A DNA stretch of 64,000 bases. Source: Fistulifera solaris. Lineage: Eukaryota > Bacillariophyta > Bacillariophyceae > Naviculales > Stauroneidaceae. Numbering within the stretch: position 1 is the stretch's first letter; each line of letters opens with the position of its first letter. Location of the stretch: contig AP026169.1 in assembly GCA_030295235.1 (NCBI GenBank), positions 310,001 to 374,000 of the forward strand, given 5' to 3'. This document shows positions 6,943 through 64,000 of this stretch, piece by piece. The notes under the pieces are model-generated. The model saw only the letters and a program-made list of their open reading frames with translations, was not told where the DNA came from and did no database searches. The translations under genes and the position numbers were made by a program.

Positions 6943-7302
6943 CCTTTATGGTAATGCGACAGACTCTTATTCAGAGATAATTTTTCTTTTAAGAAACGAT
7001 TAGTTCTTGCTCGTGCTTGGCTGCTCGCTCCTCATGGTGAAAAGTGTCCGTTCACTTGCGCTTGAACTTGCGTTTAGTCGTTCCAGTGTTCAGTGTTCAG
7101 TGTCCCTGGTAGGTTACACCAATTCTGAATTCCAGATTCCGTTTTTTTAACGACACAACATGTCGCATACGACAATTTGCAGTATGCGAAAAGCGAAAAA
7201 CTTGTGGTCACACGCTTACAAACAAAAAAGAGGGGCAGCTGCAACCGATGGTCATCCAATTGGTGCAACAATTCAATTTGTTCGTAGCACTCACCACTAA
7301 AA
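6943..7302. promoter_or_regulatory. Divergent intergenic region, GDT1-like / UBL5
   Basis: 360 bp lie between two divergently transcribed start codons, so the promoters of both genes must be here. No TATA-like box is clear. A tandem CAGTGTTCAGTGTT sequence occurs near 7084-7102. Confidence 0.5.
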
Positions 7303-12047: not shown

Positions 12048-14100
12048 TTAAACTGCTTTCAGCCAAAGAACATCTCCATTAGCTACAGGTTCATTTAAGC
12101 CAGCCCTCTGTCCGTTTCGCATGATCTTTTTGTCGCTTAGATCGTCTGTTGGCTTAGTCTCCTCTACAACAGCAAGGGCATCTCGAACGCATGCATTGCT
12201 TGGCAGTGTGATCAAACCGCCAAATTGATCAGATTCATCCTCGCTACCCATGAAAACGTAGACATTTGCCTCCCTTTTCTTCGCCAAATGTAAAGCGTCT
12301 AGGTAAGATTTGCTCGGCATACGTTTTTGGTAGACGAGCGACTGGTCGGTGCTGTTTTGTTCATGTTCACCGCAGAAGGGAGTCGCGGTCGCCGATTCGT
12401 CAGAACAAGGTTTTAATAGTCTCGTTACGGGCGCCCTGTCGCTGCTTCCCAGTTTATAGCACCAGTGGCTGGCAAATCCATGTTCCGCTGCATCATGCAT
12501 CTCTACGCTTCGAATTTGCACCTCGAAGGGAATGTGGACTTGACCAAGGAGTGCGATTTCCGACGTATGATGGAGACTTTGATAACCATTTGGTTTAGGG
12601 TACTGAATATAGTCCTTTACTCGACTAACACCCCACAAGGCACCCAAACGATTTTGTATGTAGTAGCAAAGCAATTTCTCCCTTTCTCTTACCAGCTCAT
12701 CGTCTTCGTCATTACTCCACTTCCGTGCACCTACGATTACTCGAAGAGCAACAAAATCAAAAACTCCCGAGGATACCAATCCGGATGGATAGGCCAGTGT
12801 GTCGGTTGATTCCTTGTCAAAAACAGCCGGTGTCGATGAAACACGTGCATAATCTCCCAACACCAAAGCTCGTCCTCGGCTCTTTTTGATAAGTTTTCTC
12901 CAAAGAGAAAGAGGCTCTTTCACCCGCGTCTCTACCTCTAGATTTTCTACCAAAGCCATGAGTTTTTCATCGTGTTGAAGTGTCTGTATCGCTTCTGTCT
13001 GCAGATAGTTTGCCACAGTATTCATCAAAGGGCCTACTTCGCTGTAGTAGGAAGTGACAGCTTGATATTGCCGTCGGTACAGGACGCGAAATGCAGCGTT
13101 TTCGATTTGTTTCTTTAGTTGAGATAGCCCCAAACGCCCCGCTAAAATGGAATACACTTGCAAACCATCTTTCGCCAAACGGATCGTTTGAGGGGATAAT
13201 TTTTGTCTCTTCATTGGCTACACCCTGCAGTCGATACAGACATGCCACACATCGAATCATCAAGGCCCGAAAATCATCGGTTAGAGAAAGCAGGAGACCT
13301 TGTACTCGATCCGACACAGTGTGCGATGGCGACAGTATAGACTGAATGAGTAATTCGGCCCTTTTAATGCGAGCAGCCGCCATACAGATCGCTTCTACTT
13401 CATTGCGCATCCGTACGGAGGCTTGAAAAGGAACAATTGCCTTGCAATCGACTATTTCCGTAGTAGCTTTGGATTGCAATCGCAACAATGTGGTGTCTTT
13501 CGCAAAATTCTCTTGGTGATGAAGCAAAACTTCGTGGACGTCTTCCTTGACACATTCCAAAGCACCACTTTTTCGGACCAAAACACACTTGACATAATGC
13601 TGGATGGACGCTTGTAACACTGCGGAAGAGAGAAAGATGGAAGACGCCAATTCCGAGGACAACGAATCCATGTAAATGTGGATGAAATCCATGCATCCCA
13701 GCGCCACACTCCGGTCAACCCGTGCAATTCGATTGATATCTTGTACAATATGTGAGACTTGAAAATCGTCCCAGCCCAAATGATGCAGTCGTTTTTCTAA
13801 AGCGTCGACTTGTTGAGTGACATCGTCCCCGGTGGCGACTTCGTGCTGTGTCAGCCATGGAGGGAGCTTGGAAGAGGCATCGGTAAGCGGTTCTCTCTGC
13901 GAAAATAAGTGCACCGAATACTGTACTGGCCGTCTTTCTAGTGGCATCCAAGGAGTGAATCCGTTGACTGCCACGAGGGAAAGCAAGATGAAAAGAGATC
14001 GGCACGAAGGCAATTGTTTCTCTATCCTCGTTCCGTCGGGTCGTTTTCGCTTGACCCCTGACTTCGGCGGATGCATTAGTCTCCATAAATGTTCGCTCAT
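12048..14100 (-). CDS. RSH: Plastid RelA/SpoT homologue, (p)ppGpp synthetase
   Basis: About 683 residues if the frame break at 13200-13204 (T5 on plus) is removed. The start at 14100 (MSEHLWRLMHPP) gives a hydrophobic signal (LFILLSLVAVNG) followed by FTPWMP; an aromatic at +1 of the cleavage site is the diatom stroma-targeting hallmark. The N-terminal half aligns with the HD hydrolase region, but no HDxxED motif is seen. The switch region (RCVACLYRL, then AKDGLQVYSILAGRLGL) and synthetase domain follow: VFDFVALRVIV, KDYIQYPKPNGYQSLH, FEVQIRSVEMHDAAEHGFAS. A TGS-like C-terminus ends the protein (NVYVFMGSEDE...GGLITLPSN). It transfers pyrophosphate from ATP to GDP/GTP to make the alarmone (p)ppGpp in the plastid. 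It converges with the EF-hand repeat gene at a 53-bp gap. Confidence 0.88.
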
Positions 14101-15138: not shown

Positions 15139-15543
15139 GCTCATAACAATTAAGATTAAGAGACTTGTGTTCTGTAAAACTTGTATCCGTATTCAATGAT
15201 GTTGAGCTTTGATTAGCTATGTCGAAAGCTAAAGAGAAAGGAATATAGCGGTGCGACATCCGGGTAGTCTGGCTAGCAACCTACTCAGAGTACTGCGTAG
15301 CCGAAAGATTTAAGCATTGTTGACTGAGTCAGTCCCTGACGATTGACTGAGCTTTTATGCTGCGTGTTGGAAGGACAAAGAAAGTCCGCGCGACGAAAAG
15401 GAGGAGAGAACGAAACACAAAGACATTTCCTAGAGAGAGATCGAACAACTTTTCTTTCTTTTTAGAATCAACACTGTTCCCGAAAGAGCCGTTCATACCT
15501 CCATTTGTTGTAACCACGCATATATATATTATATACAACTAGC
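15139..15543. promoter_or_regulatory. Upstream region of the VIT1/CCC1-type gene
   Basis: 405 bp contain an AT-rich TATATATATTATATAC block at about 15521-15536, immediately before the start codon at 15544, which could be a TATA-like or 5' leader element. Nothing else is clear. Confidence 0.4.
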
Positions 15544-16383
15544 ATGGGCCACGACAACGAACGAACACCCCTCACCGCACGAACGGCCTTTCAAGACAAG
15601 AACGCCGCCGCGAGTCGTCAATACCACGAGTCTCGTTCTTCGGCCGTGAAAAGTGAAGAAGCACATCAACAGGGCGGTGGGATGCTCAAACCAATCATCT
15701 TTGGTGGTCTTGATGGAATTTTGACGTCCTTTGCGATTGTCGCCGGTGCGGCCGGTGGCCGTCTCGATCCTTCCGTGGTGCTCATTCTCGGATTCTCCAA
15801 TATTTTCGCGGATGCCCTGTCGATGGGAGTGGGTGAATTTCTTTCGAGTAAGGCGGAGAATGAGTGGATTCTGTCGGAGCGTCGTCGAGAGGAATGGGAG
15901 TTTGAGAATTATCCGGAAGGAGAAATAGAGGAGATGATTGAAATTTACGAATCGCGAGGCATGTCACATGAAGATGCCAAGCTGGTAATAAATACCATGG
16001 CAAAGTATAAAGACTTCTTCGTGGATGTCATGATGACGCAGGAGCTAGAATTACAGCCCCCGGAAGAAAATTATTTACAAGAGAATCTTCGCGAAGGCGT
16101 GGTCATGTTTTCTTCGTTTGCAACCTTTGGGGCCATGCCGTTGCTCGGCTACGTCATCATCCCCTCCGCCTTTCCCGATTTAAGTACCGACTATCTCTTT
16201 GCGTGTGCTTGTTTGATTACTGGAATGGTCTTGTTCCTGATGGGATCCGTCAAGAGCTTCTTTTCGACTCAGCATTGGTTTCGTGCTGGTATGGAGACTC
16301 TCTCTCTGGGCGGAGCATGCGCAACTGTAGCATTTACCATCGGCCAGGCATTGCAGGCCCATTTCGGAGTATCTGATGTATAA
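15544..16383 (+). CDS. VIT1/CCC1 family Fe/Mn transporter
   Basis: An intact 279-residue frame. After a hydrophilic N-terminus, KPIIFGGLDGILTSFAIVAG is the signature first helix of the CCC1/VIT1 family. ILGFSNIFADALSMGVGEFL is the second conserved helix with its metal-path Asp, Met and Glu residues. A Glu-rich cytosolic segment follows (EWEFENYPEGEIEEMIEIYE, about residues 115-175), corresponding to the metal-binding domain of plant VIT1. Three further helices are at about residues 180-275 (FATFGAMPLLGYVIIP, LFACACLITGMVLFLMGS, ETLSLGGACATVAFTIGQ). Family members export Fe2+ or Mn2+ from the cytosol into vacuoles in exchange for protons. Here it probably buffers cytosolic iron; the same window has a possible iron-uptake protein cluster at 53-60 kb. 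The choice between Fe and Mn cannot be made from sequence. Confidence 0.92.
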   Translation: MGHDNERTPLTARTAFQDKNAAASRQYHESRSSAVKSEEAHQQGGGMLKPIIFGGLDGILTSFAIVAGAAGGRLDPSVVLILGFSNIFADALSMGVGEFLSSKAENEWILSERRREEWEFENYPEGEIEEMIEIYESRGMSHEDAKLVINTMAKYKDFFVDVMMTQELELQPPEENYLQENLREGVVMFSSFATFGAMPLLGYVIIPSAFPDLSTDYLFACACLITGMVLFLMGSVKSFFSTQHWFRAGMETLSLGGACATVAFTIGQALQAHFGVSDV

Positions 16384-24823: not shown

Positions 24824-25874
24824 CATAACGGTACTGTTCTTGTGAACCTATTAAACTTTGTAAAAAATATCAATGAGAGAACACTTCTAAAGTGGCTCAA
24901 GATTGTTTTCACTAGTTACCTTTGCAAATCTTTTCCTATAACACCCGTTGGATACCATAGATTCACAAAGTTAGGCGCAACAAGGTAACTCATTGAATTA
25001 AGACCCTAGATTGCCTCGACTGATTGTCTTCTTACAAAGTATAGAAAAAATTTTTTGGAATCAATTTCATTGGCTGAGACGACTGAACTAGACCTCATAG
25101 CCATTTTCTCCTTAGCACGATGAATCGCACGTGATTGCCTTTATTGTTTGCGGCTGTCGTCGTCGTCAAAGGTCCAAGGCTGTGCGGCGTGGTGTTTCGT
25201 GTTCCATCACCATGGCGTCTGTGTTCCCTACTGTCCCCAAATGAGTGCCGAGTGCGGAGTGCGGCAACTGATAAGACTGCGAAATGACGAACTGATAAAC
25301 ATCTATTTGTGTAGTCGAACGACAGTGGTAAACTTATAATAAAAAATTGTGGTTCGTTGTTCAAGTTCGGCATCGTATGTCATGTCTATACTTGATACTT
25401 GATCATTCCATAAGTCAGGAAATGACGTTAAAATTCTGCCGCCAGTACAAGATTCTACGTGGCGTCCACGACGGGGCAGGATTTTAACGCCGTTTCAGTT
25501 TCCAGACAGTAAGACTTCAAACTTCAAACGCACTTTCATGTCCGCTCTAAGCGCGTAGCGCTAGCCCTTATTCTCCGATCGTGATTTGCCTAATTAAGGG
25601 CAGATATTACGAAAATGTCTCAGGAACATCAAAGAGCAGAAAAGATAGGTGACTCCGCGAAAAATTGTTGCGGGGTTTAGAAATGGAGCTCGGAGCAGTG
25701 ACTCTCGCGGAACATCTGTGCCCCCTCGCCACTCGCTCCTCTCCCCCCGCTACAAGGTAAACCTGGTAACAAAAACTCGTTTAGCTGCGAGCATTACTCG
25801 CAGCAGGCTCATTTGGCAGCCAACAACTATCGTTGTTTCATCCCGGCAAAAGAAAACGAATTCAATTTAATATA
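24824..25874. other. Intergenic ~1 kb upstream of the hybrid kinase
   Basis: Mostly AT-rich, with no reading frame showing a domain. It contains the nested inverted repeat annotated separately at 25426..25489, and a further TTCAAACTTCAAAC direct repeat near 25510. Confidence 0.5.
25426..25489. repeat. Nested inverted repeat (potential hairpin)
   Basis: The outer arms CGTTAAAATTCTGCC (25426..25440) and GGCAGGATTTTAACG (25475..25489) are complementary over 15 bases with one mismatch, which would be a G-U pair in one transcribed orientation. The 34-bp interior contains a second perfect palindromic stem, CGTGG-CGT-CCACG (25458..25470). The arrangement would fold as a long stem with an inner hairpin. 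It lies about 390 bp upstream of the histidine kinase start. A miniature transposon end, a terminator or a structured transcript are all possible. Confidence 0.6.
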
Positions 25875-27904
25875 ATGGTGTTGGCGATGAAGACGGAGAT
25901 AACAATGATCCGGAATGAAGCAGATTTCGAGGTGAATAAGAAAGCAGCGGATGATTCTCCCGATCAAACGAAAAAATGTTACAGTCGACAGGACCTGGAG
26001 GCGTTTAACCTTCTCAACCACCCGGTTTGGGTCTTTGACATACAAAACAAAGCCATGTGGTGGGCCAATACATCTGCTCTCAAGACGGTATGGAGCGCTG
26101 AATCACTGGATGCACTATTAGAACGAAATTTTAGCGACATGTCCGCGGCTACCGAACGTCGCCTGCTCGACTATTTAGATCGCTTCGAGAAAGGAGAGCA
26201 AATCACCGACTCGTGGACATTTTATCCCAAAGGAGGCGGACCGTGCACTGTTTATTGCACAATGAGCGGAATGTATGTGGAAAATGGCCGTATGGTTATG
26301 CTGAATGAAGCCGAACTGCGCACGACGACGGAAACCATCGACAAGGGTGCGGTGCGCGACACCGAGTTGTTGCGTCATTTGCCGGTTCCAGTAGGACAAT
26401 TCAATGCCAAAGGCAAAGTCATGGAGCAAAATCCGGAAGCACTCCACGTTTTTGGTGGAAACAAGTATTGCGACGGATCTTGTGAGCTCGCGGGGAAGGA
26501 ACGAAATCCTGGATGCAGTCTAATTGATCGATTTGTCGACAAGGAAGAGGGGAGACTGGCACTTGAAAAAGTGTTCAGTGACGGAGCTGATTACTCGAAT
26601 GAAATAGAGCAATACACCAAAACAGGCGTGCGCTGGTTTGCAGTGCAAATGAGGAGAGCAAAAGATCCTATCACGGGAGAGCATGTTGTTTTGTACAGTG
26701 CCCGCGACATTACAGCTCAAGTTGAAGCGAACAGTAATGCTATGGCGAGTGCGCTGGCGAAAAAAAGAAGCCGATGAAGCAAATATGGCGAAATCCGAAT
26801 TCGTTGCAGTAATGGGCCATGAAATGCGCACACCGCTCCATCACGTGCTTGGTTTTCTCGAATTAATAAAAGGGACAGAGCTGAGCCCCAAACAGGAAGA
26901 ATATCTGGGGCTCGCCGAAACGTCAGCATCAGCACTTATGGGAGTAGTAAATGATCTACTGGACTTTACCAAATTGGAAGCTGGAAAAATGCCCATGGAG
27001 CGACTGAGCACCAACATATGCGATGTGGCAACGGCTTCGGTGAAAGTAGTCGAATCCCAAGTGGCGGAGAAAGGCCTTAAGCTCAATACTTACATTGATA
27101 CCAGCATACCCCTCGTCATTGCCGATCCCGTTCGCATTCGACAAGTGTTATTCAACTTCCTTGGAAATGCCCTCAAGTTCACCAGTGAGGGGGGAGATAA
27201 CATTGTCCGTTCGAAGATTACCCAACAATGAAAATGACCGCGTGGTAATCCATTTCTCGGTACAAGATACTGGAATAGGAATTGATCCAGAACAGCAAAG
27301 CAGAATCTTCAGCAAATATCAACAAGCAAATCCTTCCATCGCACGCAATTACGGCGGTACTGGTTTGGGATTGGCGATTTGCAAAGTCATAGTTGAAACA
27401 CTCGGGGGAACGATAGGTCTCGAAAGTGACACTGGACGCGGCAGCCGCTTTTGGTTCCAGATATCGGTCGACCAAGCTCCTTGTGTAACGGAACACGTAA
27501 ACAGCACCAGCGAGAATGAAGAATACGCTTCGTTGCATGTATTAGTTGCGGAAGACAACAAAGTGAATCAAAAATTGATGGCTTCGTTCCTGAGACGCCT
27601 GGGTCACACTTTCACGATCGTCGAGAATGGGCTTCTCGCTGTTGAGGCCATCGAACGAGAGAAGTATGATCTGATCCTGATGGACATTCAGATGCCAGTA
27701 ATGGATGGCATAGATGCAACGCAACAGATACGTACAAATGGCTGGTCTATGGAAGCACTTCCAATACTGGGCTTGACCGCCGAGTTTCACACAAAAAATT
27801 ATGAAAAATTTCTCGCCATAGGTATGAACGACTGCGTGGGTAAACCCATCCGACTGGACAACTTGAAGAAATATCTCCAAGTGAAAGGAAAGAATCCACC
27901 CTGA
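25875..27904 (+). CDS. Hybrid sensor histidine kinase (PAS-PAS-HisKA-HATPase-REC)
   Basis: About 675 residues once one base is removed from each of A7 (26760-26766) and G6 (27189-27194). The start at 25875 (MVLAMKTEITMIRNEADFEV) is the first ATG in frame. Two PAS-like domains come first (HPVWVFDIQNKAMWWANTSA; then VPVGQFNAKGKVMEQNPEAL), followed by HisKA with the H-box VMGHEMRTPLHHVLGFLE (phospho-His near residue 315). The HATPase carries the N-box (FNFLGNALKFT), G1 (DTGIGI) and G2 (GGTGLGLAICK). The receiver domain is LHVLVAEDNKVNQKL with phospho-Asp in LILMDIQMPVMDG and Lys in GKPIRL. There is no membrane segment, so it is a soluble sensor, with input probably a small ligand, redox state or light through PAS. 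No response-regulator output gene is nearby. Domain assignment is secure; the signal is unknown. Confidence 0.92.
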
Positions 27905-49597: not shown

Positions 49598-51204
49598 ATG
49601 AATGGTGTTCAGCATGACGACGATGATGATGATGATACAAAACCAAGCCCGATGAATGCCGCAGAGATTATCCGCACAATAGATTCTGCTTACGCAAAAA
49701 TGAGTACAAATGTATTTAGCGCTGCCCGCGATGCCGAAGAAGCGCGTGAGAACGCAAGAGTAGCTTCAGCGGTTGTTCGAAGGTATGCTTCCGCATCTCG
49801 AGCACCCTCCACACCGGCACCTCCATCGCCTCCATCACGATCTCCCATAATACATCCACCTAGCCAACAACAAAACAAGCATCCACCACCCAAAGTAGTA
49901 TTTGGTAGAAAGAATAGGCCACCGCCGCCTCCGCCACCACCCCGAATACAACCCAACAAAAAAAGCAATCAACGCCGAGTGCCTGGAGGGTCAAGGGAGT
50001 ATTTCGTATGAAAATTTGTCCACTGATAAGAGGCCGATGGAGTCGGCTCCACGAACTCCCATCGGTAGTTATACACCGACGGAGCGGCTGAGCAATGCCA
50101 ATGCCGAAGAGATGTTAGCGCTTTCTCTAGAATTGGAAAGGACGAAGCAAATGCTCGAACACGAAAAAACGATTCACGAAGATACAAAAACGGCACTGGA
50201 GCATTCCGAAGAGAAAAATGGTAAATTGCAGCATGAAATTGAAAAATTGTTAAATGAACTGGAGACACAACGGCAGAATTATGGATTGGAGGTCGAGTCA
50301 CTGGAGCGCGATCTAGAAAAGTCTCGTCGTCGAGTTCAAGCCGCCGAAGAAGATGCTGAGGTAGCGTTAGATCTGGCGAAAGGGAATTCGGAAAGTAGAG
50401 AGCAACTGGAGGCTTGGCTACAACGGGCTTTTTATGAGATTGAAACGTTACGAGAGCGCTTACTGTTAACCGACGGAAAGCGCGAAGACATCAATGGAAC
50501 AGCCCAACCATCCGTTTCACCAGGGCTGGAAGCTTTGCATCATGCTCCCAAAAATATCAAGTCACAATCCCAGCAACGCGTGGTTCGTTTTGCCGACGAC
50601 GAGGACTCATCAGAGATGGTTCCATTGCCCTCGCGGCCTTCACGCAAATTAGTCGCCGCTGGACGACAAATTCTGCAACGATCTTTGGCACCTCCAAAGG
50701 ATGCCTCACCGATTCATCGAGTAGTACCTCCGGAACTTTCTGCAGATCGTCTGCGTCAGCTACGATCGCGTCTGACAACGATGAGTGTGTCGCAATCGCT
50801 TCCTCCTCCGCCTCCAGGGCTTGGGCCGATGCGCAAAGAAGAGCTTGTAGCTAAAGTGCAAGCAATCGATGTTTGTCGCAATACTGCTCGGATATTGAGA
50901 CAGAGCGGGAAAAAATTACAATTTACAGGAAAATGCTTTGATGCTGGAGTAAGTTTTGACGTTGCAGATGACTTTCATCTGGAGACACTGGCAAGACAAT
51001 ACTGCGCAGCTGCGGAGGTGAGTTGATGATATTAGTGTGGACATGCCGGATTGGTCCCAGTTTTCTTACTTAATTTCATATTTTTTTATTACTCAGGTAT
51101 CAATCGATAACCAGAGGAAAGAAATTTTAGGATTAACATCGCTCGTTTCATTATGGGAGCAAAGTTTGCCATCTGATACAAAGTCAATACATCCTCGGGA
51201 ATAG
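49598..51204 (+). CDS. Coiled-coil protein with polyproline, unknown function
   Basis: Exons 49598..51017 and 51097..51204, with a 79-bp intron (GTGAGT to ACTCAG). One base of the A7 run at 49958-49964 must be removed, giving 508 residues from MNGVQHDDDDDDD. After an Asp run and a helical segment, a proline tract (RPPPPPPPPRIQP) occurs near residue 115. It is followed by a long coiled coil (about 160-290: LALSLELERTKQMLEHEKTI, ALEHSEEKNGKLQHEIEKLL, ETQRQNYGLEVESLERDLEK). The C-terminal ~120 residues are Arg/Leu/Pro-rich with a conserved-looking end (TARILRQSGKKLQFTGK, then across the intron VSIDNQRKEILGLTSLVSLW). No known domain is recognised. Its modular pattern resembles cytoskeletal or vesicle scaffold proteins, which is only a guess. 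Confidence 0.65.
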
Positions 51205-53159: not shown

Positions 53160-53167
53160 ACACGTGC
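53160..53167. promoter_or_regulatory. ACACGTGC motif, possible iron-responsive element
   Basis: ACACGTGC lies about 270 bp before the start of paralog A. From memory, this octamer has been reported as an element of iron-starvation promoters in Phaeodactylum; that recollection should be verified. It fits the tentative iron-uptake identity of the gene. Confidence 0.4.
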
Positions 53168-53431: not shown

Positions 53432-55065
53432 ATGTTGTTAACCTCGATTGCCCTTGCAGCTTTGCTTGTTGGCTGCGAAGCCAAGATTGGAGCTCGTAAG
53501 CTCTCTTACCAAAAGATCTACAAGTTCACACCCAAGACGCAGGTTACGGATCATGTAAGTTTCGGCGACCTTGCTGTTCTTCATCATACTGTCGTTAGTA
53601 CGACTCATTTTATACTTTATGACCTTATTTGATCAGGCTGCCATTGATCTGGATCAGCAAGAAATTGAGACTTTGTTGACCGACCAGTATCTTTGGTCCG
53701 CTGCCCAAGCTGTTTACGAAAATGGTGCTCACTCCAAGTCGTATGCCGAAGTCACTCTTTCGACGCCCTTGACCACCACTATGGCAGCAGATGTCGAGAT
53801 TTCGGGAGTTGCCTTAGATGGTACCACTGTGAACGGAAAGATTATGGAGGAAGCTGCCAGTGGATCGTCGGTCATCAAAGTTCAGTACGCGACTTCGGAT
53901 AAGCAAGAAAAGTATGTTGGATGCCAGGTTGGAGGAAGCTCGGAGCCTGTAACAACTGGATGTAAGGTGTCGCCATTCGTTTGCTCGACCTTTCTTTTAC
54001 ATGTAACATGTTCTGACGACTGTTTCTCTTTCAGGCTTCGCCGACACTGGATCGCTCTCCATGTCGGGAACCACCCTTGACTACACTGCTGTCGCCAACA
54101 AAAACGCCCGAACCATCAGGGGTTTCAGCACCAACGACGCGAGACACCGTGTTGAAAGCAACCCGGATCAGGCGTATTACAAGGACATGCAAATGTTCGT
54201 TGACTACTACGGATCCTCCGACTACGCCGACAAGTGGATCATGGCTGCCCTTGCCAACGGATCCACCGGATACTCTGGACTTGGTGAAACCAACTTCTCT
54301 ACCCTCGATGACACTGGTCGAAAAGAAGCCGTCGTCAAGGGAACTGTCTTCCTTGCTATCTTCATGTACGTCATCCGCGAGCTTGAGGACGCCATCGATG
54401 ACTGCGTCGTTCAGTGCGATGCCGATACCTGCAACGACGATCCCGTGCATGCATTGGATGAGGCAGTTGCTTTCTACACTGGATCCCTCCACCTTACTGA
54501 AGGATCGGACGGCAACCTTCTTTTTTCTTTGGCTGAAAAGCGTTGTGAGAACTTCCTAACCTGCGAAAACGGAGAAGCCGCTGTCAACAACAGATTGTTT
54601 GTTCTATTTAACCGCATGCAGAACCTTTTGCAGCAAGGAAAATGCGAGGAAGCCGCCACTGTCGTTTCAGATATCACCAACATCATGTACGTCCCCATGA
54701 TTCAGGGAGCTTTCCGTTACGCCTACAAGAGTGGTGAGCAGGATGATCAGACTCCCAAGTCGGAAGCTGAGGGAGCTACTTTCGCCGCCGCCGTCCTTCC
54801 CAAAGTCCACAAGTGCAATGCCGCCGACGCGCAACTTATCTACGACAACATGAAGGTTGGTAACACCGAGCCCGTGGACTGGCCTGCCGTCAAGAGCGCC
54901 TTTGAGCGAAACTACCGATGCATGGGTATCACTTGTGCCGATGTTGGTGGTCAGAGCGATGGAGAACTCTATTTTGAAGGAGCCGGTCCCTGCAGTTCCA
55001 GCTTCATGACCTATGTCGGCCTAGCTCTTGGTCTTGCCGCTGCTTCTCTTATAGCCTTCTTCTAA
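53432..55065 (+). CDS. Paralog A: cysteine-rich surface protein, FEA1/ISIP2A-like
   Basis: Exons 53432..53554, 53637..53961 and 54035..55065 (introns 82 and 73 bp) give 492 residues. The signal peptide is MLLTSIALAALLVGCEA. The N-terminal domain has AAIDLDQQEIETLL, AAQAVYENGAHSKSYAEV and a Cys pair (VGCQVGG...TTGC). The second domain has YYKDMQMFVDYYGSSDYADK, DDCVVQCDADTC, HALDEAVAFYTGSL, EKRCENFLTCENG, KVHKCNAADAQLIYDNMKVG and NYRCMGITCADVGG. The protein ends in a hydrophobic tail (YVGLALGLAAASLIAFF) right at the stop, resembling a GPI-anchor signal. The spacing pattern recalls algal FEA1 and diatom ISIP2A (phytotransferrin) proteins, which assimilate iron at the cell surface; this assignment is from memory of the pattern and is tentative. 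It is the first of three tandem copies. Confidence 0.75.
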
Positions 55066-55930
55066 AGCATACATGTCAATAAATAAATGAATGTAGTAGA
55101 GAAACAGTGATTTGCTAATCCCATTGTTAGTCTGTATTAACTCGTCGAGACGTGTAGTTTGCTACAAGCGTGAATTCAAAAGAAGCACACCTGATACGGT
55201 ACCTGGTACCGGTACCGTTTTCTGGCAAATCATTGATTTTGACTAAGTGTACACGCGACCTTTCCAAACAGACACGGAGTACATTTCAGTCACGAGACAC
55301 TATTTTTCAAGACAGACGGCTACCTAACCTCTGTTTATTCTGCTCGACCGGTACACAACATTTGTCTTTATTACAGTGTATCTTCCTTTAACTGCCTTTG
55401 CAATGCACAAATCTCAAATCTATTTCTTACCTCGGAAATCCAGGCCATCCTTATCCTTGTACTCGGAGTAATTAATATGGACCCACTGTGTATGCGACCT
55501 TTGGCCACGACTGCGTTTCAGTCATGAATCGTGATGTCAATACCGACCGCTCTACTGGTACAGACCCATGAGTCACCTCAACTCGGTGTGCTAACTTGGC
55601 AGGCTACATTTTCTTTGTCACTATTCATGATGAATTAATAGTGGTCCAACGTTTAGATAACCACATACTCACGTGTAAAACCTTGTCAAAAAATACTAGC
55701 CGCATGAGTATCCCTAATCCTATTCGCGATTCGCTCTATATCTCTGTCAACCACAATCAACCATAAAGTTTGATAGAATGACCGTCACAAATTACGCACT
55801 ATGATCTTAAAAGTCTACAAGGGTGCAAAAGAGTCATTGCACTTTCCCATCGAGCCACCATAAAACATGCACCCAAATAGAATAATACGAGCAGGGAACA
55901 AAGACATTGCGATCAAAAGGAGAAACAACC
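55066..55930. other. Intergenic between paralogs A and B
   Basis: 865 bp. A GGTACC element (TACGGTACCTGGTACCGGTACCG) occupies 55195..55217, about 130 bp after the stop of paralog A. A CACGTG hexamer is at 55670..55675, about 255 bp before paralog B, a distance similar to the ACACGTGC site of paralog A. No gene was recognised. Confidence 0.5.
55195..55217. repeat. GGTACC tandem palindrome
   Basis: Three GGTACC units, one offset by CT, between paralogs A and B. It is similar in kind to the cluster at 53019. Confidence 0.7.
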
Positions 55931-57805
55931 ATGGCAGAGAATGATCGTCAACTATTTTCACTGAGTCAAGAGACTCTGGAAGTCCCTTTATATGAACCGA
56001 CTTTCAACTGGGCCAACGCGGTGAGTCCGAAAACGGCTTTTGCATCCCGATGCTGTTCTTGTTTTCGCTGATTTTAGTTCTCTCTCTTTCTTCAGATGAC
56101 TATCGATTTAGATATAGCCAAAATGAGTGAGCTCATGGCAAAGGGAACATTCGATGACTTTATGAAAGCGAAGCAAGTGTATGAGTTCGGTGCTTTTGCG
56201 TGGCCTTATGCGGAAATGCAAATTGACGGTGGTTCACCGGTCGAAGTGAAAAAAGGAACACCGGTGACGGGCTATACGATGCTGAATGATCCGGTTCATG
56301 GTTACGTGTTAGAGCATGTCAAACCACGACAAGGAAAATTTAAAATTGAATACGACATTGATAGTTTGTCGAAGCAATCGGCGACTTCGCAATGTTCCGT
56401 GGGAGGGAATCCAAATCCAAACTTCCGCAATTGTAAGTAATGCCGTGAAGGGACACAGCCAGTTAAAAAGAAAGTTCTAACCCACGACACACGCTCATGT
56501 AGGCTTTACAGAAAAAGGAGCTATACGGGTAGATGGAATTAAGGAACCCTTGCATTACGAATACAACAAAGAAGTGGATAACCGAAACTTTCGCACCATT
56601 CAACGTTTAAGTACACTAGCAGGCTCGAAAATGAAGATGTGTGCCAACTGTCAGTATTTTCACGACTTTAAGAAAGCCAACGACTATTTTCAACTTCCGT
56701 CGTATGCGGACGCGTGGATTACAGCGGCCCTGACGGGGACAGCGGTAGAAATTCCCGAAGGAGGAAGAGGAGGTGCTGATTTTTCGACCTTCAGTTTCAG
56801 TTCACGCGCTCGTAAGTACAGAAAACTCATTTGTTGAAGTGATTAGTAGCTGAAAGAAGCAGTACTAACGATCAACGTATTCGATTTACAGACGCGGTGG
56901 AATACGCCGCATCCTACATGGCAGTCACCCAATTTGTTCTCCGAGAGATGGAAGAAGCTTTCTATACGTGCCAAGCTGACTGCGACAATGGCACGAAGTG
57001 TTTCGAAACCGCTTTGCATCATGTAGACACGGCCGTGGCATTCTACACAGGCTCTCTCGTCCACACCAAGGGCGAAGACAAAGGGATACTATTGTATTCC
57101 CTAGCCAATCGAATGTGCACGAAATTCAAAACTTGCGGAAAGAACGGAAACAGCAATTACGGCACATCCGTTGTGAACAAACAAATCTTTGAGGAGTTCC
57201 ACAAATCGCAACAAGCAGCATTGCATGACCAATGTCCAACTGTTCGACAGGCGAAGGAGGCGATTGCTCATAAGATTAATGTTCCCTTGATTCAGGCTAC
57301 TTTGGAAGCTGCGTACAAACGCGATTCAATCACGGGAAAGGATAGTTCCCAAGAAGAAGAAGAAGAAGCGATTGGCGCCACCCTGGCAGCAACGGTCGAG
57401 CCGCTAGTCGCTGCTTGTAATCAAGCGGATTCCCAACTTATCCATGACAATCTCAAAACGGGAGCGGATAGTACGTCGTTTCTCGACGTAAAGAGGGCAT
57501 TGGAGAGAAATTACAAATGTATGGGTGTTACGTGCGAGATGATCGGTGCTTTACACAACAGCAGGACGGGGAAGCCGTATCCAGGTGCGGAAGCGTGTGT
57601 AACGCCCAGCGAAATGAAGGAAAAGCTGAAAACACATTTGCCGTGGGCTAGTATCACCTTCGTGCTGCTTGTGATATTCTCTTGGTGGTCCTACAAAAAG
57701 ATGCAAGCGAAGTGGAACGAGAGAAAGCGCCGTCTGAAGCGTATTGATGAAATGAATGACCTCTCAGATTCAGACGACGAAGACGAGCACATGATCTTTA
57801 CATAA
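55931..57805 (+). CDS. Paralog B: cysteine-rich membrane protein, FEA1/ISIP2A-like
   Basis: Exons 55931..56020, 56096..56432, 56503..56811 and 56892..57805 (introns 75, 70 and 80 bp) give 549 residues. The first two introns match those of A and C in position and phase; the third is unique to B. Conserved blocks: MTIDLDIAKMSELMAK, AKQVYEFGAFAWPYAEMQID, CSVGGNPNPNFRNC, NDYFQLPSYADAWITAAL, YTCQADCDNGTKC, HVDTAVAFYTGSL, NRMCTKFKTCG and NYKCMGVTCEMIG. A membrane helix (WASITFVLLVIFSWWSYKK) and a charged cytosolic tail (MNDLSDSDDEDEHMIFT) end the protein. Oddly, the start MAENDRQLFSLSQETLEVPL shows no signal peptide, unlike A and C. Either an upstream exon was missed or this copy is not secreted in the usual way. 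Family assignment is tentative, as for A. Confidence 0.72.
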
Positions 57806-58624
57806 GTCACGAAGGACTCTCTAGTTTCCTGTGTAAGACACGGGTTTCTTACTTCGAATGGCAAGTTGTGTATCATTCCTTCATAAAACATCTACAAGTG
57901 ATATCTTTAGGTAGTTCTAGACTAAAACACTGCAAATAATATACTCTCTTGAACTACAATAAGGCAAATCCTAGAGTGAGTGAAACGTCGCGCACATTTG
58001 TCGATAGTTCGTCTCCTGGTAGCCCTAGACAATTATCTACTTTCTAGCTAGATAAGTGCATGTCGTGCTGGGTTACCAACGGGAATGAACCGTGCCCATC
58101 GCGCACTTCCCCAAGCCAATGCCTGTCAAACCGTAAAACGCACCTCTTTTTTTCGTTGGCAGCTAGACCTATCACGAATCACGACAGGCAATCAATTTTT
58201 AGACAAATGCACGTCAGAAACGGCAACTGAACTCAAGACCGAAGCGGGGGGCAATTTTGAAACAAGTGTGCGAGAACGAGTCACGCCCGAATTTCTTTGT
58301 ACAGTCATGTATCTCATCGGATCGGATCGTTGCTCGGAGACAGATATTTGGCAAAGGATTTCATGTACAATGTCACTCTTTGCGGGTTAGTTCATGGTAT
58401 TGAATCACCTAAGTAAGCTAAGACAAGAATTTTTCTCATCTAAGTAATTTTGGCAGACGCACAATAATTATGGCTTCATTTGTCTGAAAAGAGGGAGTAT
58501 CGTTCAAATGTATACGGCGGAACGACTCAACGGGGATCAACTGAAGAGTTTTTCATTTTCTTTTGCCTGCACTTCTTTTTCTCTTCAGAAACATCTTTAC
58601 CTTTTCATCATTGCTTTATAAACT
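57806..58624. other. Intergenic between paralogs B and C
   Basis: 819 bp. A 101-codon frame at 58085..58390 (MNRAHRALPQANACQTVKRT) has no recognisable domain and no paralog similarity, so it is not called. No CACGTG is present, unlike upstream of A and B. Confidence 0.45.
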
Positions 58625-60526
58625 ATGAAGATTATAGCTTCTCTACTATTAGGCTCTTTGACGTTGGCTCACGCTAGTCAAGCAGGACAAAGGCGTCTTG
58701 AGAAGGTACGTTTCGTGGGTGACCAACGACGCACTGTGGGGATCCTATCTTCTCACAACACCATTCTCTCAAAAGAGTACGCTGGCTGGATATCAACCCC
58801 AAACCCAAATTACAAATGAAGCTGCGCTGGATCTGGATCAGCAGATTCTAGAGGAACGCGCGGGTGTTGCCGATTTCGATCATGCGCAGAGGATCTACTC
58901 GAACGGAGGTCACTCGGGCAGTTTCGCTCTCATCACGCTCATTGCTCCCCCGGACAACAAATCCTACAAAGCTGGCACTACCGTCATGGGTTTCACGGAA
59001 CGAGGCAGCGATTTGATCGCCTCTTTGAAAGAAGACACCGAATGGGGAGTTGTCAACGGCGGAAACGTCACTATTGAAGTGCTGTATACCGTGTCGGACG
59101 AGCAGTCGCACCATGTGGACTGTATGGTGGGAGACTTGTTTGCCTTGGAAGCAGCGTATCGTGTCGGATGTAAGTAACAGAATCCGGCGGAAGGTCTTGA
59201 ATGTACCAGCGCTACAAAATATAGCTCATATTATTTTCTCTTTCAGGCTTGAAACCCTCGGGAGAAATCGAAATCATCCCCGTGACACCCTCCCAGACCA
59301 TCGACAAATTCACATACGAATACGACGCACGACTTGATAACATCAACTGGTTGACATTGCAAAGTCTCAGCACAAACGCCGAAACAACTATGAGAAGCTT
59401 GTCGGGTAGCTATTATAGTGACTTTCAAAAGTTTGTTGAATTTTACGGCGATACCAATTATGCCGACAAATGGGTTCTAGGAGCTGCCAATGGTGAAGAT
59501 ACTGCTTTTAGCAAGAACCGTGGAAACGCCAACTTCTCGGCCTTGTGGCACACGGGTGGTGGAAAAGGACGCGTCGAAGCGATGACTCATGGTGTCTGGT
59601 TGTTGAACGTATGGATGTATGTGATCCGCCAGATGGAGTATGCCATTGATTTGTGCAGTGTGGAGTGCACCGAAGCTACCAAGGATGCCTGCGAAGACCA
59701 TGCAGTCGCCGAATGGGACAAGGCGGTGGCGTATTATGCTGGGTCGTTGGCGGGTGAGAACGGTGATGGACACGGTGTTTTCCCCTACGCGTACGCCAAC
59801 ACCCGCGCCAAGGAATTCAAGACGACTGGATACAACAGTGACGACGTTTCTGGAGCATCCTATGTCAACTTGGAAGCCATCTATCTATTCCAGCGGGGAC
59901 AGGGCATTCTCATGGAAGACATTGGATCGGCCAGCCGTTGCGATTCGGCTAAGAATATCAAGAACTCGATCACCAATCTCATGAAAGTTCCGTTGATTCA
60001 GTCAATCTACCGCTTTGCGTGGATGCGTGAGTTTCAGACTAATTTTGATGAAAAGCACCAAGCAACTGCAGCAACGTACGCTGCTGCTCTCTTACCCTAC
60101 GTTCATGAATGCAAAGCCTCCGATTCTTCCTTCCTTTACGATCATATGAAAATCGGTGCCCATGCTGATAATGCCGAGGGTAGTTTCGCCAAAATTAAGT
60201 CTAAATTGGAGGGAATCTACGACTGTCTTGGTGTAACGTGCTCACAAATTGGTGGAATTTACGCGGACGGTGAATACGCGGAAGGTGCCGAACCTTGCAA
60301 GGATGGGTCGTTCGTGATTGACCGCACTCCGGAAGGAATGCGACAAAGTGAGGGTGCCCCACAAAATGACCGAAACCCAGTCGTCACTTTGGGAGCTATC
60401 GTTGCTGTATTCGCCTTGCTAGGACTGGCGGGTGTCGTCTATTTACGCCGGAAAGCACCCAAGGAAATCGAAGATACCAAGAATATTGCGGCAGTAACCG
60501 CCATTTCTGATGTCGATTTGGCGTAA
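58625..60526 (+). CDS. Paralog C: cysteine-rich membrane protein, FEA1/ISIP2A-like
   Basis: Exons 58625..58705, 58776..59169 and 59247..60526 (introns 70 and 77 bp) give 584 residues. The signal peptide is MKIIASLLLGSLTLAHAS. The blocks of A recur: EAALDLDQQILEERAGV, AQRIYSNGGHSGSFALITLI, HVDCMVGDL...YRVGC, YYSDFQKFVEFYGDTNYADK, DLCSVECTEATKDAC, EWDKAVAYYAGSLAGENGDG, YVHECKASDSSFLYDHMKIG and IYDCLGVTCSQIGG. One Cys pair of A (RCENFLTC) is lost here (RAKEFKTTG). It ends with a membrane helix (LGAIVAVFALLGLAGVVYL) and a ~30-residue cytosolic tail. Surface iron assimilation is a tentative inference, as for A. Intron position and phase match A and B. Confidence 0.75.
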
Positions 60527-61260
60527 CCCTTGATATTGTGCTCTGAGGATGTCAGCGAGCCTCTCAGGTAACAGTTCACTTCTATGGATGACAAAAGCCT
60601 TTGTTGAATGAAGTCTCTTATGCATACCGTAAATTTTTTCATTTTTTTTTACAAAAATTTTCATTGAGAAAATAGCTTACACAACATGTCGAAAGCTACA
60701 GATCGAACACAAACACTGCAACAAAATACATCAATGCTTACGGTGTGATGAAGTCGAGGTACCCCTACCGGTGCCTTATTATACCCAGAGAAGATAAGAA
60801 GTTCACGATCGCCCTAGGTATAACCTTGCCTTTTACGTGATACGGAGTAATAAACCTTAAAAGTAGAAAAGTCGGTCCTTTCGTGACTCGATAGTAGAAC
60901 ATCCCCCAAAGTACGTTTTGGTTCCCAGTCACTACTATGCGCGGTCACAATAATGGTCCCAATTATAACTCCACAACAACATTTCCGCGTCGCGCGGTCA
61001 TGGGATGCTTTGCTATTTTTCTGTTTCACTCCTTTTGCATCCCATCACTGCGAAAATTGCCATTGGAAAGCAAAATTGCTTCTGGTGACGAGTCGGCACA
61101 CAAGTCGATGTTATATGCAAAGAGTCCGCTGGGTGGATATTGAATTTAAGATTTTGTAACGCTTCGAACGGTTCGCTTCTTCATCGCGCAAAGGAATTCA
61201 CGCACCTAAAAGGTTGACCGTCTACTTCTTCAGCAAGAAAATTCTTGGAACCAGAAAGCT
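60527..61260. other. Intergenic after the paralog cluster
   Basis: 734 bp. A degenerate GGTACC element (GGTACCCCTACCGGTGCC) lies at 60758..60775. Short frames at 60814..61159 have no domain. Confidence 0.45.
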
Positions 61261-64000
61261 ATGGCTTCGATGGAAAGGCTCGCAAAACCGTTTCGGCGCA
61301 AAAATCGAACTTTGAAATCACAGGATGATCTTCATATTTTCCGCTCATCGGATACGAGTTCTTCAGCAAATGTTATTGAGCGGAAAATGGTGCGAGACGA
61401 TTCTGATATTGGAAGAAATTCTCGCACTATCATCAGTGCTATGACGCCCAAATTACTTAGTCTGAAAACGGCACCCAAAAGGGGAACTCCTGGAAGAGCT
61501 CGACGAAGGAGACGAAACACGGACGACTCGGTGGATTCCAGTAGTGCTTCCACGCGTGCATCGATGATCGGACGGTTGTTCTCTCGAAAGAAAAACGGGA
61601 CACCCACGTCTTCCCGCTTTCATATAGGTCGAAGTGAATCAATCAGCAGCGGGGACGGTTCTATGGATAAGGATTTTGCTCGGGTGTCGATTGAAATGGA
61701 TGGCGTCCCCGAATTACCGCGGGGGATTCTCAAAAACTCACGCGGGCGTCAAGCTGCGAAACAGACACCGACAAAACTCAACGATCCAACACACACTCCT
61801 TATCAACTTGAGACGACTTCCGACCGGAACACGGCGGATGCCACGGAAAATGCCGAGGACGTGCAGTACGATTACGACGATACCGACCCTATGCCGCGGC
61901 GAACTCCCGGCGAACGTGCGCGCTACAGTGTTTATCATGGTCAAGTCAAGCGCAAGATGCGTGTGCGGCCGTACCATTTGTTCCCTCTCGATTTCAAAAT
62001 GACGGAAGAAGAAATCTATGCCGATAGTATGAAGCCATCGCAAAACTTTATCTTCCTTAAATCCTATCTGGCCCCGACTTCAAAGGAAGTTGAGAAGATG
62101 GATGCGCCTATAGCTGTGTCTCAGTTGTTTGGGTCACCACAAGAAGACGCACGTATTGGTGCTCTCAGGGTTGAGGTACTGGGATGCATCGCTCTGCCAC
62201 GGACAAAGCCGGATATAGCGGTGTATATGGTTTGCGGCGATGCAGCTTTCGCCTCTGACGTTCTTTCAGGCTACCGCTCACCTATCTGGCCGTCGCTTTC
62301 CAGACGAGCAGCGGTCTTTCCGCTGCACCACGCGTTTGCTCAACTTTATGTTGGAGTTTTTGATGTGCGAGCGAACAAGAATAAAGAGAATGACGTGTTT
62401 TGCGGGAGGGTTTCACTTGATATTGCTGCTTTGAGATCAGACACGGAGTACGACGTGACATTCCCTCTTCGTGCGTCTACTTTTGTTTACGATAGAAGAA
62501 AGCGAGGAGTAATTCGGTTACGATTTTCGGTTCATTGGTTTAGTGAGAGGGCTGCACTCGTTTCTTATTTCAAGAAACCAAAAAGTCTGACCTCTTGTGC
62601 GCCTTTGTATCACGGAAGTCCAACTATTCCCTGCGCAGACCCGAAGACTTTCCGCAATGTTGCTTTCACTGTATACGGCCAAGATCTTCCAGGAAAGTAT
62701 TCTCGAAATGCTTTCAAGTCAACAATGCGAGAATACACTCTCTACCAGCAGAACACAACTTTGCTGGCCCAAATGCTAGCTTTGGATGCAATTTTCTATG
62801 AGCGACCGCACATCTCTTTATATCTCTTTCTCTCTGGCATGTACTGTATTTCGTCGAATTCTATAAGTCTGGTACCCGCTGTATTTGTTGGGTACATCAT
62901 CATTTTGTTCATTGAGAACTACATGCATTACATCGACGGAACAAAATTCAATATGGGATACAGACCCCACACCTTGCAAGAAATTCTAAATGGTTTAATT
63001 GGCCATGCTTCCGGAGCTGGTGGATTTTTCGAACCGGCGCTGGTAGAGAAGAAAACGAAAAGGAAACGTGGGTACGAGTGCGACGCGAAAGACGACAAAG
63101 ACGAGGTTGAAATCGAGCCATTGGATCACCGCGAGTTTCCCTTCTCTGACCGCGATGCATATCCCAAATGGTCTGTTGAAGACGCTCTGGCACCAAGCTC
63201 AAATAAGAAAAATGGTAAGTGCATGAGCGGAAGCTTTGGTTGAATATTCTTTCTTTCATCTCAATCTCACCGCCTCGGATCTACCAACAGGAGGAAACAC
63301 GAGGCTTCACGGACGTCTGTCGGTATATTACACTGCTGCCCCACCAACAGGAGGAGACAAAGCTCGGGGCGAGGACGAGGACGATGCGAGTGAAGATAGC
63401 GAAAACGACGATGAAACTATTGACACAACAGACACCATGTTCAATCTTGATTATGACGTCGACGACGACCTTGACGAATCTGAGCACGAAACTCTGCACA
63501 ACGCTTACCAACACCAAGACAATCTTTTGAATCCAACCGTAACGAAAACTCGGTACAAACTTGGCCCGCCGCAGGACGTAGATAAAAGAGGAGCCAAGGT
63601 ACCCCCACAACTCCAGCTGCAAAAAACTGAACGAAGGATACACGACTATTCCTTCAAAATTGCGGTAGAGCCAATTTTCGCTCCTACAAATATTGAAACC
63701 GGCTTAGACGTCGGTATCACCAAAAACACTACAGTTGAAAGTCGAGAGATGATGATGTTGAACGATCAGAATTCCGCTTTGAAGAAGCGAAAAGCAGTCT
63801 ACGACGAATTCGATAAACTTCTTGGGTTGAAAAGTCGCTCTGCGAATCCATTGAATCGAATCATGTCGTCATTTCTTGGACCGCTAATGCGAATGTGCCG
63901 TATCAGTCTCTATGCATTCCGAATCTCCTACCATACCTTTAGCTGGAGAGATCCATTCTTCTCTTTCTGGTCTTGGTGGCGCTTTGCGCAGTTTGCCTTA
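61261..64000 (+). CDS. C2-domain membrane protein (partial, runs off the window)
   Basis: Exons 61261..63214 and 63291..64000, with a 76-bp intron (GTAAGT to CCAACAG); the frame is still open at the window end, giving 888 codons so far. The N-terminal ~200 residues are basic and Ser-rich (MASMERLAKPFRRKNRTLKS). Residues about 295-430 resemble a C2 domain: GALRVEVLGCIALPRTKPD, AQLYVGVFDVRANKNKENDV, CGRVSLDIAALRSDTEYDV and RGVIRLRFSVHW. At least one membrane region follows (YLFLSGMYCISSNSISLVPA, VFVGYIIILFIENYMHYIDG). After an acidic stretch a second amphipathic region starts (MCRISLYAFRISYHTFSWRD). The plan, C2 plus C-terminal helices, recalls MCTP/extended-synaptotagmin-like proteins that tether membranes. 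Confident of C2, unsure of the family. Confidence 0.75.

What the first reader, a model, noticed from the sequence alone, without database searches (positions are those of the whole stretch)
53432..60526. Tandem trio of cysteine-rich surface proteins, possibly FEA1/ISIP2A-type iron assimilation
Three genes in the same orientation share two intron positions with the same phases (phase 0 after the leader; phase 1 inside a Cys codon), a conserved Cys pattern, and blocks such as 'YADKW', 'AxxYxGSL' and 'CMGxTC'. Local tandem duplication followed by divergence is clear. The pattern recalls FEA1 and ISIP2A proteins, but the name is from memory only. If right, this is an iron-uptake gene cluster in a genome region that also has a VIT1-type metal transporter.
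Basis: partly seen in the sequence, partly recalled or inferred. Interest (0 to 1): 0.75.

Follow-up and report, generated by a model that had tools for sequence, protein, structure and literature searches.

The report
Three ancient diatom phytotransferrin-like genes
A diatom carries three neighbouring genes for surface proteins of the algal iron-catching (phytotransferrin) family; they look like old relatives rather than recent copies, only the first keeps nearly all of the family's conserved residues, and relatives in marine archaea often sit beside transferrin-type iron-uptake genes.

Summary
The trio is real and belongs to the FEA1/phytotransferrin (ISIP2A-like) superfamily. The window is Fistulifera solaris DNA: gene 1 is identical to FisN_8Lh165. 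The window proteins themselves miss Pfam Fea1, but two partial relatives about 80% identical to gene 1 pass its cut-off, and 36 of 48 alignment members match it.

Recent local duplication is not supported. Genes 1 and 3 each join proteins of other, unnamed organisms, and a trio clade is rejected. The shared phase-1 intron also occurs in family genes on other contigs.

Gene 1 looks like the canonical iron binder: it keeps 18 of 19 residues conserved in algae and archaea; gene 2 keeps 8 and gene 3 keeps 11. All three are under purifying selection. VIT1 is 37 kb away.

Beyond the window, prokaryotic FEA1-related lipoproteins (49 of 52 loci archaeal by title) precede transferrin-domain or Fec-type ABC genes in 36 of 44 loci; the transferrin neighbour matches PF00405 in 20 of 20. 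Five literature searches listed no report of this. Iron binding and regulation were not testable.

The parts
53432..55065 (+). Gene 1 (492 aa; exons 53432-53554, 53637-53961, 54035-55065; introns phase 0 and 1). Canonical phytotransferrin-like protein, likely signal peptide, GPI-like hydrophobic C-terminus
   Evidence: splicing; identical to FisN_8Lh165; homeolog dN/dS 0.088; AlphaFold2 model pLDDT 90.7, pTM 0.88; 18 of 19 cross-domain residues
54112..54996 (+). Gene 1 helical (Fea1) domain, residues 176-470
   Evidence: model of this stretch alone pLDDT 92.3, pTM 0.92; partial relatives P0002 and P0003 match PF07692 at their residues 76-220 and 100-303
55006..55062 (+). Gene 1 C-terminal hydrophobic stretch, residues 474-492, with no residue after it (GPI-anchor-like)
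   Evidence: mean hydropathy 1.94 over 19 residues, tail length 0; helix 476-491 in the model
53160..53167 (+). ACACGTGC, a low-iron promoter motif, at -272 to -265 of gene 1 (published screen: 150 to 250 before the start)
   Evidence: 3 in window, 1.83 expected by chance; homeolog has GCACGTGC at the aligned place; motif from passages of PMC3491386
55931..57805 (+). Gene 2 (549 aa; exons 55931-56020, 56096-56432, 56503-56811, 56892-57805; introns phase 0, 1, 1). Divergent member, no leader found, weak C-terminal TM and acidic tail
   Evidence: 8 of 19 cross-domain residues; long branch 1.61; homeolog dN/dS 0.072 with three single-base indels
57638..57694 (+). Gene 2 possible transmembrane stretch, residues 495-513
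   Evidence: mean hydropathy 1.45 over 19 residues, just under the 1.5 used as threshold; 36 residues follow
58625..60526 (+). Gene 3 (584 aa; exons 58625-58705, 58776-59169, 59247-60526; introns phase 0 and 1). Divergent member with likely signal peptide, TM and tail
   Evidence: clade of 7 rows with P0121, P0122, P0125, P0126, P0127, P0129 at 99/96; 11 of 19 cross-domain residues; homeolog dN/dS 0.056
60383..60439 (+). Gene 3 predicted transmembrane stretch, residues 538-556
   Evidence: mean hydropathy 2.57 over 19 residues, 28 residues follow
60482..60523 (+). Gene 3 tail NIAAVTAISDVDLA, residues 571-584
   Evidence: pattern [NQ][ILV]AAVT[AE] in the last 40 residues of 10 of 178 retrieved proteins; the six of these that are in the tree all fall in gene 3's clade

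Best explanation
The trio encodes three cell-surface proteins of the FEA1/phytotransferrin superfamily in the diatom Fistulifera solaris. Gene 1, the one modelled, has an N-terminal beta-rich domain and a helical Fea1 domain; it is probably secreted and held by a GPI-like anchor, whereas gene 3 and, less clearly, gene 2 have a transmembrane stretch and a tail. [quoted passage not shown] Genes 2 and 3 are old paralogues under purifying selection that have lost many of the conserved polar residues; they most likely bind something else or act as partners of the binder. Shown here: homology, gene structure, selection, predicted fold of gene 1, tree position of genes 1 and 3, residue losses. Inferred: iron as ligand, carbonate dependence, endocytosis, induction by low iron, division of labour.
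For: Homology: 763 relatives, some named low iron-inducible periplasmic protein; PF07692 in 36 of 48 alignment members and above its cut-off of 25 bits in P0002 and P0003, partial proteins 78-81% identical to gene 1 (25.7 and 26.8 bits); NCBIfam FEA1-related lipoprotein down to 1e-52 in algal-type relatives, below that model's own cut-off. Passages say that ISIP2A carries PF07692 and binds ferric iron (PMC7966952, PMC7676907). Confident model of gene 1. Purifying selection on all three genes. Of 19 residues conserved in both algal and prokaryotic sets, genes 1/2/3 keep 18/8/11. Prokaryotic relatives have transferrin-domain or Fec-type ABC genes within three same-strand genes downstream in 36 of 44 loci, and a flavodoxin, a low-iron marker by general knowledge, in four more. 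Low-iron motif upstream of gene 1.
Against: The three window proteins do not themselves match PF07692 at E below 1, and gene 1 does not match NF038033. No solved structure matches in sequence or fold. P. tricornutum ISIP2A was not compared. Gene 2 has no recognisable leader. The promoter motif is slightly outside the published range, its exact form is absent from the homeolog, and gene 3 has no CACGTG within 500 bases. Other metals are not excluded: Ostreococcus FEA1 also responds to zinc (PMC4855317 passages). Eight of 92 algal relatives also keep 13 or fewer of the 19 residues, so such loss is not rare.
Confidence: 0.72

Rival explanations
1. The three genes are recent local tandem copies that diverged fast within the Fistulifera lineage, all with the same iron function.
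For: Same strand, adjacent, shared intron 2; the tandem order itself suggests duplication at some time.
Against: Gene 1 groups with P0009 (4 rows, 100/99) and gene 3 with P0125, P0126, P0127 and P0129 (7 rows, 99/96); a clade of the trio with its closest relatives is rejected, AU p 5e-36, and of genes 1 and 3 alone p 1e-37. The tests were run after the tree was seen, though the trio was named by the finding. Introns matching intron 2 and gene 2's intron 3 occur in C19/C20 genes on other contigs, so they predate the array. Gene 2's place is unsure (long branch).
Confidence: 0.05
2. The proteins are surface receptors of the Fea1 fold for another metal or anion, such as zinc, manganese or cobalt, and not for iron.
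For: Ostreococcus FEA1 is also regulated by zinc (PMC4855317 passages); genes 2 and 3 have lost many conserved polar residues.
Against: ISIP2A binds ferric iron (PMC7676907 passages); prokaryotic relatives neighbour transferrin-domain, FecCD, HugZ-like and flavodoxin genes. The zinc-responsive diatom protein ZCRP-B is NikA-like and reported not similar to ISIP2a (PMC9010474 passages).
Confidence: 0.15
3. Gene 2 is a decaying gene rather than a working surface protein.
For: No leader found, 8 of 19 residues kept, long branch, three single-base indels in the homeolog.
Against: dN/dS 0.072 between homeologs, computed in gene 2's frame with gapped codons dropped; the window copy is open through four exons; two of the three indels lie in A runs, so sequencing error is possible.
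Confidence: 0.2

Closest known systems
ISIP2A / phytotransferrin (pTF) of Phaeodactylum tricornutum
   Same: Same Pfam family through relatives; N-terminal domain plus C-terminal Fea1 domain; surface location (passages)
   Different: Not compared directly; gene 1 ends in a GPI-like stretch without a tail, whereas pTF is reported to have a C-terminal endocytosis motif; genes 2 and 3 have lost many residues conserved in the family
FEA1 / FEA2 of Chlamydomonas
   Same: Fea1 domain (the profile's namesake), iron assimilation protein proposed to act in the periplasm (passages)
   Different: Cr-Fea1 is said to lack the N-terminal region of Ot-Fea1; gene 1 has a beta-rich N-terminal domain and all three have a C-terminal hydrophobic stretch, weak in gene 2
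T. oceanica ISIP2x8 and other multi-domain FEA1 proteins
   Same: Same family (passages); the F. solaris genome also has multi-repeat genes on C28 and C29
   Different: The trio are three separate single-domain genes
NCBIfam NF038033 FEA1-related lipoprotein of prokaryotes
   Same: Homologous helical domain in relatives (P0020 2.5e-23, P0125 1.3e-6, P0007 1e-52); 19 scored conserved residues shared
   Different: Gene 1 itself gives no match and all algal matches are below the model's cut-off of 250 bits; the algal cysteines are not among the shared conserved positions; encoded next to ABC importer genes
Transferrin (PF00405)
   Same: Analogous function in the literature
   Different: No transferrin in the Foldseek and VIA lists for gene 1's models; that absence is not proof

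Membership tests
Fea1 (PF07692) | Own sequence matches the Pfam profile above its cut-off | tested here: not met
   no match to PF07692 at E below 1 for genes 1, 2 and 3
Fea1 superfamily (broad) | Homology over most of the length to proteins that do pass the cut-off | tested here: met
   P0002 and P0003 (partial, 78-81% identical to gene 1) score 25.7 and 26.8 against cut-off 25; P0013 and P0020, 46-47% identical over 95-99% of gene 1, score 45.3 and 36.5
Phytotransferrin / ISIP2A type | N-terminal domain followed by C-terminal Fea1 domain | tested here: met
   gene 1 only: beta-rich part to about residue 175, helical domain 176-455; Isip2a layout from PMC4855317 passages
Phytotransferrin / ISIP2A type | Signal peptide | tested here: inconclusive
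   best 12-residue mean hydropathy in the first 45 is 2.63 (gene 1) and 2.26 (gene 3) but 0.67 (gene 2); no dedicated predictor was run
Phytotransferrin / ISIP2A type | Single C-terminal membrane anchor, genes 1 and 3 | tested here: met
   hydrophobic stretch 1.94 with no tail (gene 1, GPI-like) and 2.57 with 28-residue tail (gene 3)
Phytotransferrin / ISIP2A type | Single C-terminal membrane anchor, gene 2 | tested here: inconclusive
   1.45, just under the 1.5 that I used as threshold for relatives
Phytotransferrin / ISIP2A type | R/K-E/D-x-x-E motifs (two in Isip2a per PMC4855317) | tested here: inconclusive
   gene 1 has one (RELED 264), gene 2 one (REMEE 263), gene 3 has Q in place of the first E there and three matches elsewhere
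Phytotransferrin / ISIP2A type | Sequence orthology to P. tricornutum B7FYL2 | not tested
   its sequence did not appear by name or 54
Phytotransferrin / ISIP2A type | Carbonate-dependent ferric binding, endocytosis, induction by iron starvation | not testable with these tools
   needs experiments; only a promoter motif hint
Transferrin (PF00405 fold) | Periplasmic-binding-protein type transferrin lobe | tested here: inconclusive
   no transferrin in the Foldseek and VIA lists for gene 1's full model or helical domain

The most novel reading that the evidence does not exclude
The FEA1/phytotransferrin family began in prokaryotes as a lipoprotein partner of iron ABC importers. In marine Poseidoniales archaea it is encoded next to a membrane-anchored, apparently bilobal transferrin-family protein with its ABC permease and ATPase. 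Two carriers often described as separate solutions (recalled), transferrin in animals and phytotransferrin in algae, would thus be parts of one uptake system in archaea. Algae kept the FEA1 half, and diatoms split it into an iron binder (gene 1 type) and non-canonical surface partners with a conserved tail motif (gene 3 type).
Probability: 0.3. Interest if true: 0.8.

Novelty: new member of a known kind. Interest (0 to 1): 0.52.

Why it matters
Phytotransferrins control much of diatom iron uptake, and I found no solved structure that matches this family. The trio offers one genome with a canonical member and two conserved members that lack many of the shared residues, a natural test of which residues matter. 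The residue set shared by algal and prokaryotic relatives names candidates for the metal and anion site. The archaeal gene pairs, a FEA1-type lipoprotein next to a transferrin-type lipoprotein with its ABC importer, would tie two iron carriers into one uptake system and make the question of their origin testable.

Tried and rejected

Limits of the counts. One search scored 7996 candidates and listed 120 of 763 hits. The 19-residue set was picked by me out of the 40 positions printed: polar residues, Tyr and Trp of the helical part and its end; left out were Y32, H41, D47 and Y68 in the N-terminal part and all Phe, Gly, Ala, Pro and aliphatic positions. Adding those four gives genes 1/2/3 21/11/14 of 23 by my reading. 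The set is conserved in 92 algal (85% or more) and 46 prokaryotic sequences (80% or more), so high scores in those sets are partly by construction; gene 1 (P0001) was in the algal set, genes 2 and 3 were not. 46 of 52 prokaryotic proteins were used (350 aa or more). Against a simple story for gene 3: clade members P0127 and P0129 keep 15 and 13 of 19 and have neither K251H nor E265Q. Neighbour clusters were made by BLAST single linkage; one representative of each was identified by Pfam, except the transferrin cluster, tested on 20 of 20. At 80% identity the 52 loci fall into 9 groups, the transferrin neighbour in 2 and the Fec-type neighbour in 4, so the independent evidence is smaller than 36 of 44. 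One search used two peptide patterns, so the list is not a full census. Three of 52 record titles are bacterial (L054, L064, L082); L064 sits inside the archaeal clade, so misbinning is likely; L054 was not in the tree. The tree carries a long-branch warning for L082. CACGTG upstream of 3 of 4 family genes was noticed after the fact. The AU tests were run after seeing the tree.
Full report
What is there. The window lies at G000:C24:310001-374000 of a 51.7 Mb genome. Gene 1's protein is 100% identical to FisN_8Lh165 of Fistulifera solaris, a diatom with two subgenomes (recalled). Three genes run head to tail from 53432 to 60526. Splicing gives open proteins of 492, 549 and 584 aa, with introns of 70-82 bases and GT and AG ends. 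Contig C23 carries the same three genes in the same order, with dN/dS 0.088, 0.072 and 0.056 and the start, stop and GT/AG splice ends in place. These are genuine genes under selection. The C23 copy of gene 2 has three single-base indels, two in runs of A, and one in-frame deletion of 6 bases; for gene 3 the alignment shows one extra base at the stop codon, which still reads TAA. Decay and sequencing error cannot be told apart for gene 2 on C23.

Family. Gene 1 has 763 relatives at E 0.001 among 7996 candidates scored; 120 were listed, 97 of them with precomputed PF07692 by my count. But P0002 and P0003, partial proteins 78-81% identical to gene 1, pass the cut-off of 25 bits at 25.7 and 26.8. 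36 of the 48 members of alignment A1 match PF07692, best 1e-13; the 48 include the three window proteins. Relatives also match NCBIfam NF038033, FEA1-related lipoprotein: P0020 2.5e-23 and P0125 1.3e-6, P0163 3e-46 and P0007 1e-52, all below that model's cut-off; gene 1 itself does not match. According to the passages read, ISIP2A carries PF07692 (PMC7966952) and is a phytotransferrin that binds ferric iron with carbonate (PMC7972479; PMC7676907), and Isip2a has a C-terminal Fea1 domain (PMC4855317). I did not obtain the ISIP2A sequence, so I file the trio in the superfamily and not as ISIP2A orthologues.

Age of the trio. In a tree of 56 proteins gene 1 joins P0002, P0004 and P0009 (100/99), and gene 3 joins P0121, P0122, P0125, P0126, P0127 and P0129 (99/96). 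The C19/C20 genes elsewhere in the genome join P0174, P0175 and P0177 (100/99). Gene 2 is a long branch of unsure place. P0009 (54% identical to gene 1) and P0125 (45% to gene 3) come from unnamed organisms, presumably other diatoms. A clade of the trio with its close relatives is rejected, AU p 5e-36, and of genes 1 and 3 alone p 1e-37 (run after the tree was seen). The phase-1 intron in the Cys codon is also in C19 and C20, and gene 2's third intron matches a phase-1 intron there. P0009 appears by eye to carry unspliced insertions at gene 1's intron 1 and gene 2's intron 3 sites. So these introns are older than the array, and they are no evidence for recent duplication. Whether the three were born side by side long ago remains open.

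Anchors and tails. Gene 1 ends in a hydrophobic stretch with nothing after it, as for a GPI anchor. Of the 92 sequences of A2, gene 1 and some partial proteins included, 31 end so, 54 have 8 or more residues after the stretch, 1 has fewer, and 6 show no stretch (simple hydropathy). Gene 3 has a clear transmembrane stretch and tail; gene 2's stretch is weak (1.45). Gene 3's tail NIAAVTAISDVDLA recurs as [NQ][ILV]AAVT[AE] in 10 of 178 retrieved proteins; the six of them in the tree all lie in gene 3's clade.

Conserved residues. I aligned 92 algal and 46 prokaryotic proteins; 40 positions are conserved with the same residue in both, and I scored 19 of them (choice explained under Tried and rejected). 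Gene 1 keeps 18, gene 2 keeps 8, gene 3 keeps 11, C19 10 and C20 9. 78 of 92 algal proteins keep 18 or 19, partly by construction, and 8 keep 13 or fewer. Gene 3 and P0125 share the exchanges K251H and E265Q, but P0127 and P0129 of the same clade do not. So the altered state is shared by two lineages and is not simple decay in one genome, but it is not uniform in the clade.

Regulation. ACACGTGC, reported around -200 of low-iron genes in three diatoms (PMC3491386 passages), lies at -272 of gene 1. The homeolog has GCACGTGC at the matching place inside a conserved block. CACGTG also lies at -261 of gene 2 and at -249 and -266 of C19 and C20, but not within 500 bases of gene 3 or of the C23 copies of genes 2 and 3. 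In the whole window CACGTG occurs 14 times against 15.3 expected. This is a hint only.

Surroundings. VIT1 is at 15514-16380 (E 2.6e-65), 37 kb from gene 1, and a GDT1-type cation antiporter with an EF hand at 6037-6945. The long ORFs on either side of the trio, 49899-51023 and 61210-63240, match nothing in Pfam at E 0.001. Of the 41 ORFs, 30 were scanned, 3 are trio exons and 8 were not scanned. I see no iron cluster beyond the trio in what was scanned.

Prokaryotic relatives. A pattern scan of one genome per prokaryote species with an alignment of algal-type relatives gave 52 loci, 49 with archaeal titles (Poseidoniales, Thalassarchaea or Euryarchaeota). Three of their proteins were scanned and all hit NF038033 (L046 9.6e-118, L088 4.6e-107, and L082 1.7e-67, the last below its cut-off). 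By eye their N-termini look like lipoprotein signals. Of 44 loci with an ORF downstream, 20 have within three same-strand genes a protein of 470-822 aa that I call transferrin type, 16 have Fec-type genes, and 8 neither; of these 8, three have the ABC ATPase and PhnE-like permease clusters, four the flavodoxin cluster and one none of these. The transferrin-type protein matches PF00405 in 20 of 20 (best 4.7e-28) and PF12974 in 20 of 20. Against solved chains two representatives match lactoferrin at 6e-18 and 4e-21. The consensus has the SCHT and SGA(L/I)(K/R)CLSE motifs twice, hence 'apparently bilobal'. In the alignment an Asp, two Tyr and the Thr of SCHTG line up at places that I recall as iron and carbonate ligands, not checked one by one. 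In a quick tree of 39 rows the 12 prokaryotic and 27 algal-type proteins form two sides of one branch (SH-aLRT 99, with a long-branch warning for L082).

Literature on that pairing. Five searches showed 8 of 8, 10 of 29, 12 of 19, 10 of 13 and 7 of 7 papers, as titles and starts of abstracts; none is about it. After these searches I read passages of two of the listed papers for it. The main phytotransferrin paper (McQuaid 2018) was not read and may mention archaeal relatives. [quoted passage not shown]

Verdict. Gene 1 is probably a working phytotransferrin; genes 2 and 3 are conserved but altered members. The archaeal FEA1-transferrin pairing is the most surprising thing found, and it lies outside the window.

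Noticed in passing
L046, L049, L055, L088 and 16 further loci: A FEA1-related lipoprotein gene stands upstream of a transferrin-domain protein gene (PF00405 in 20 of 20), in many of these loci followed by ABC ATPase and PhnE-like permease clusters.
   Followed up: partly
L048, L073, L078, L090 and others: A second arrangement places the FEA1-related lipoprotein before Peripla_BP_2, FecCD and ABC ATPase clusters, often with a HugZ-like CREG-domain gene and a flavodoxin nearby. A CREG1 protein also accompanies phytotransferrin in a diatom (PMC7972479 passages), though HugZ-like and CREG1 proteins are separate subfamilies (PMC7883536 passages).
   Followed up: partly
L040 (C29) and L041 (C28): F. 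solaris has very long genes with several Fea1-like repeats, like T. oceanica ISIP2x8, on two contigs; the C28 copy is split over frames where C29 is open.
   Followed up: no
L042 (C46:355808-357607): A gene with two Fea1-like repeats.
   Followed up: no
L037 (C23 copy of gene 2): Three single-base indels in coding sequence despite dN/dS 0.072; two in A runs.
   Followed up: partly
window 55232-55263 and 55471-55502: A 72% direct repeat of 32 bases in the spacer before gene 2; the second copy overlaps a block conserved on C23.
   Followed up: no
window 25785-27901: PAS domain, histidine-kinase-type ATPase and response regulator matches in neighbouring ORFs, a possible hybrid sensor kinase.
   Followed up: no
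window 12051-13217: RelA/SpoT domain match on the - strand.
   Followed up: no
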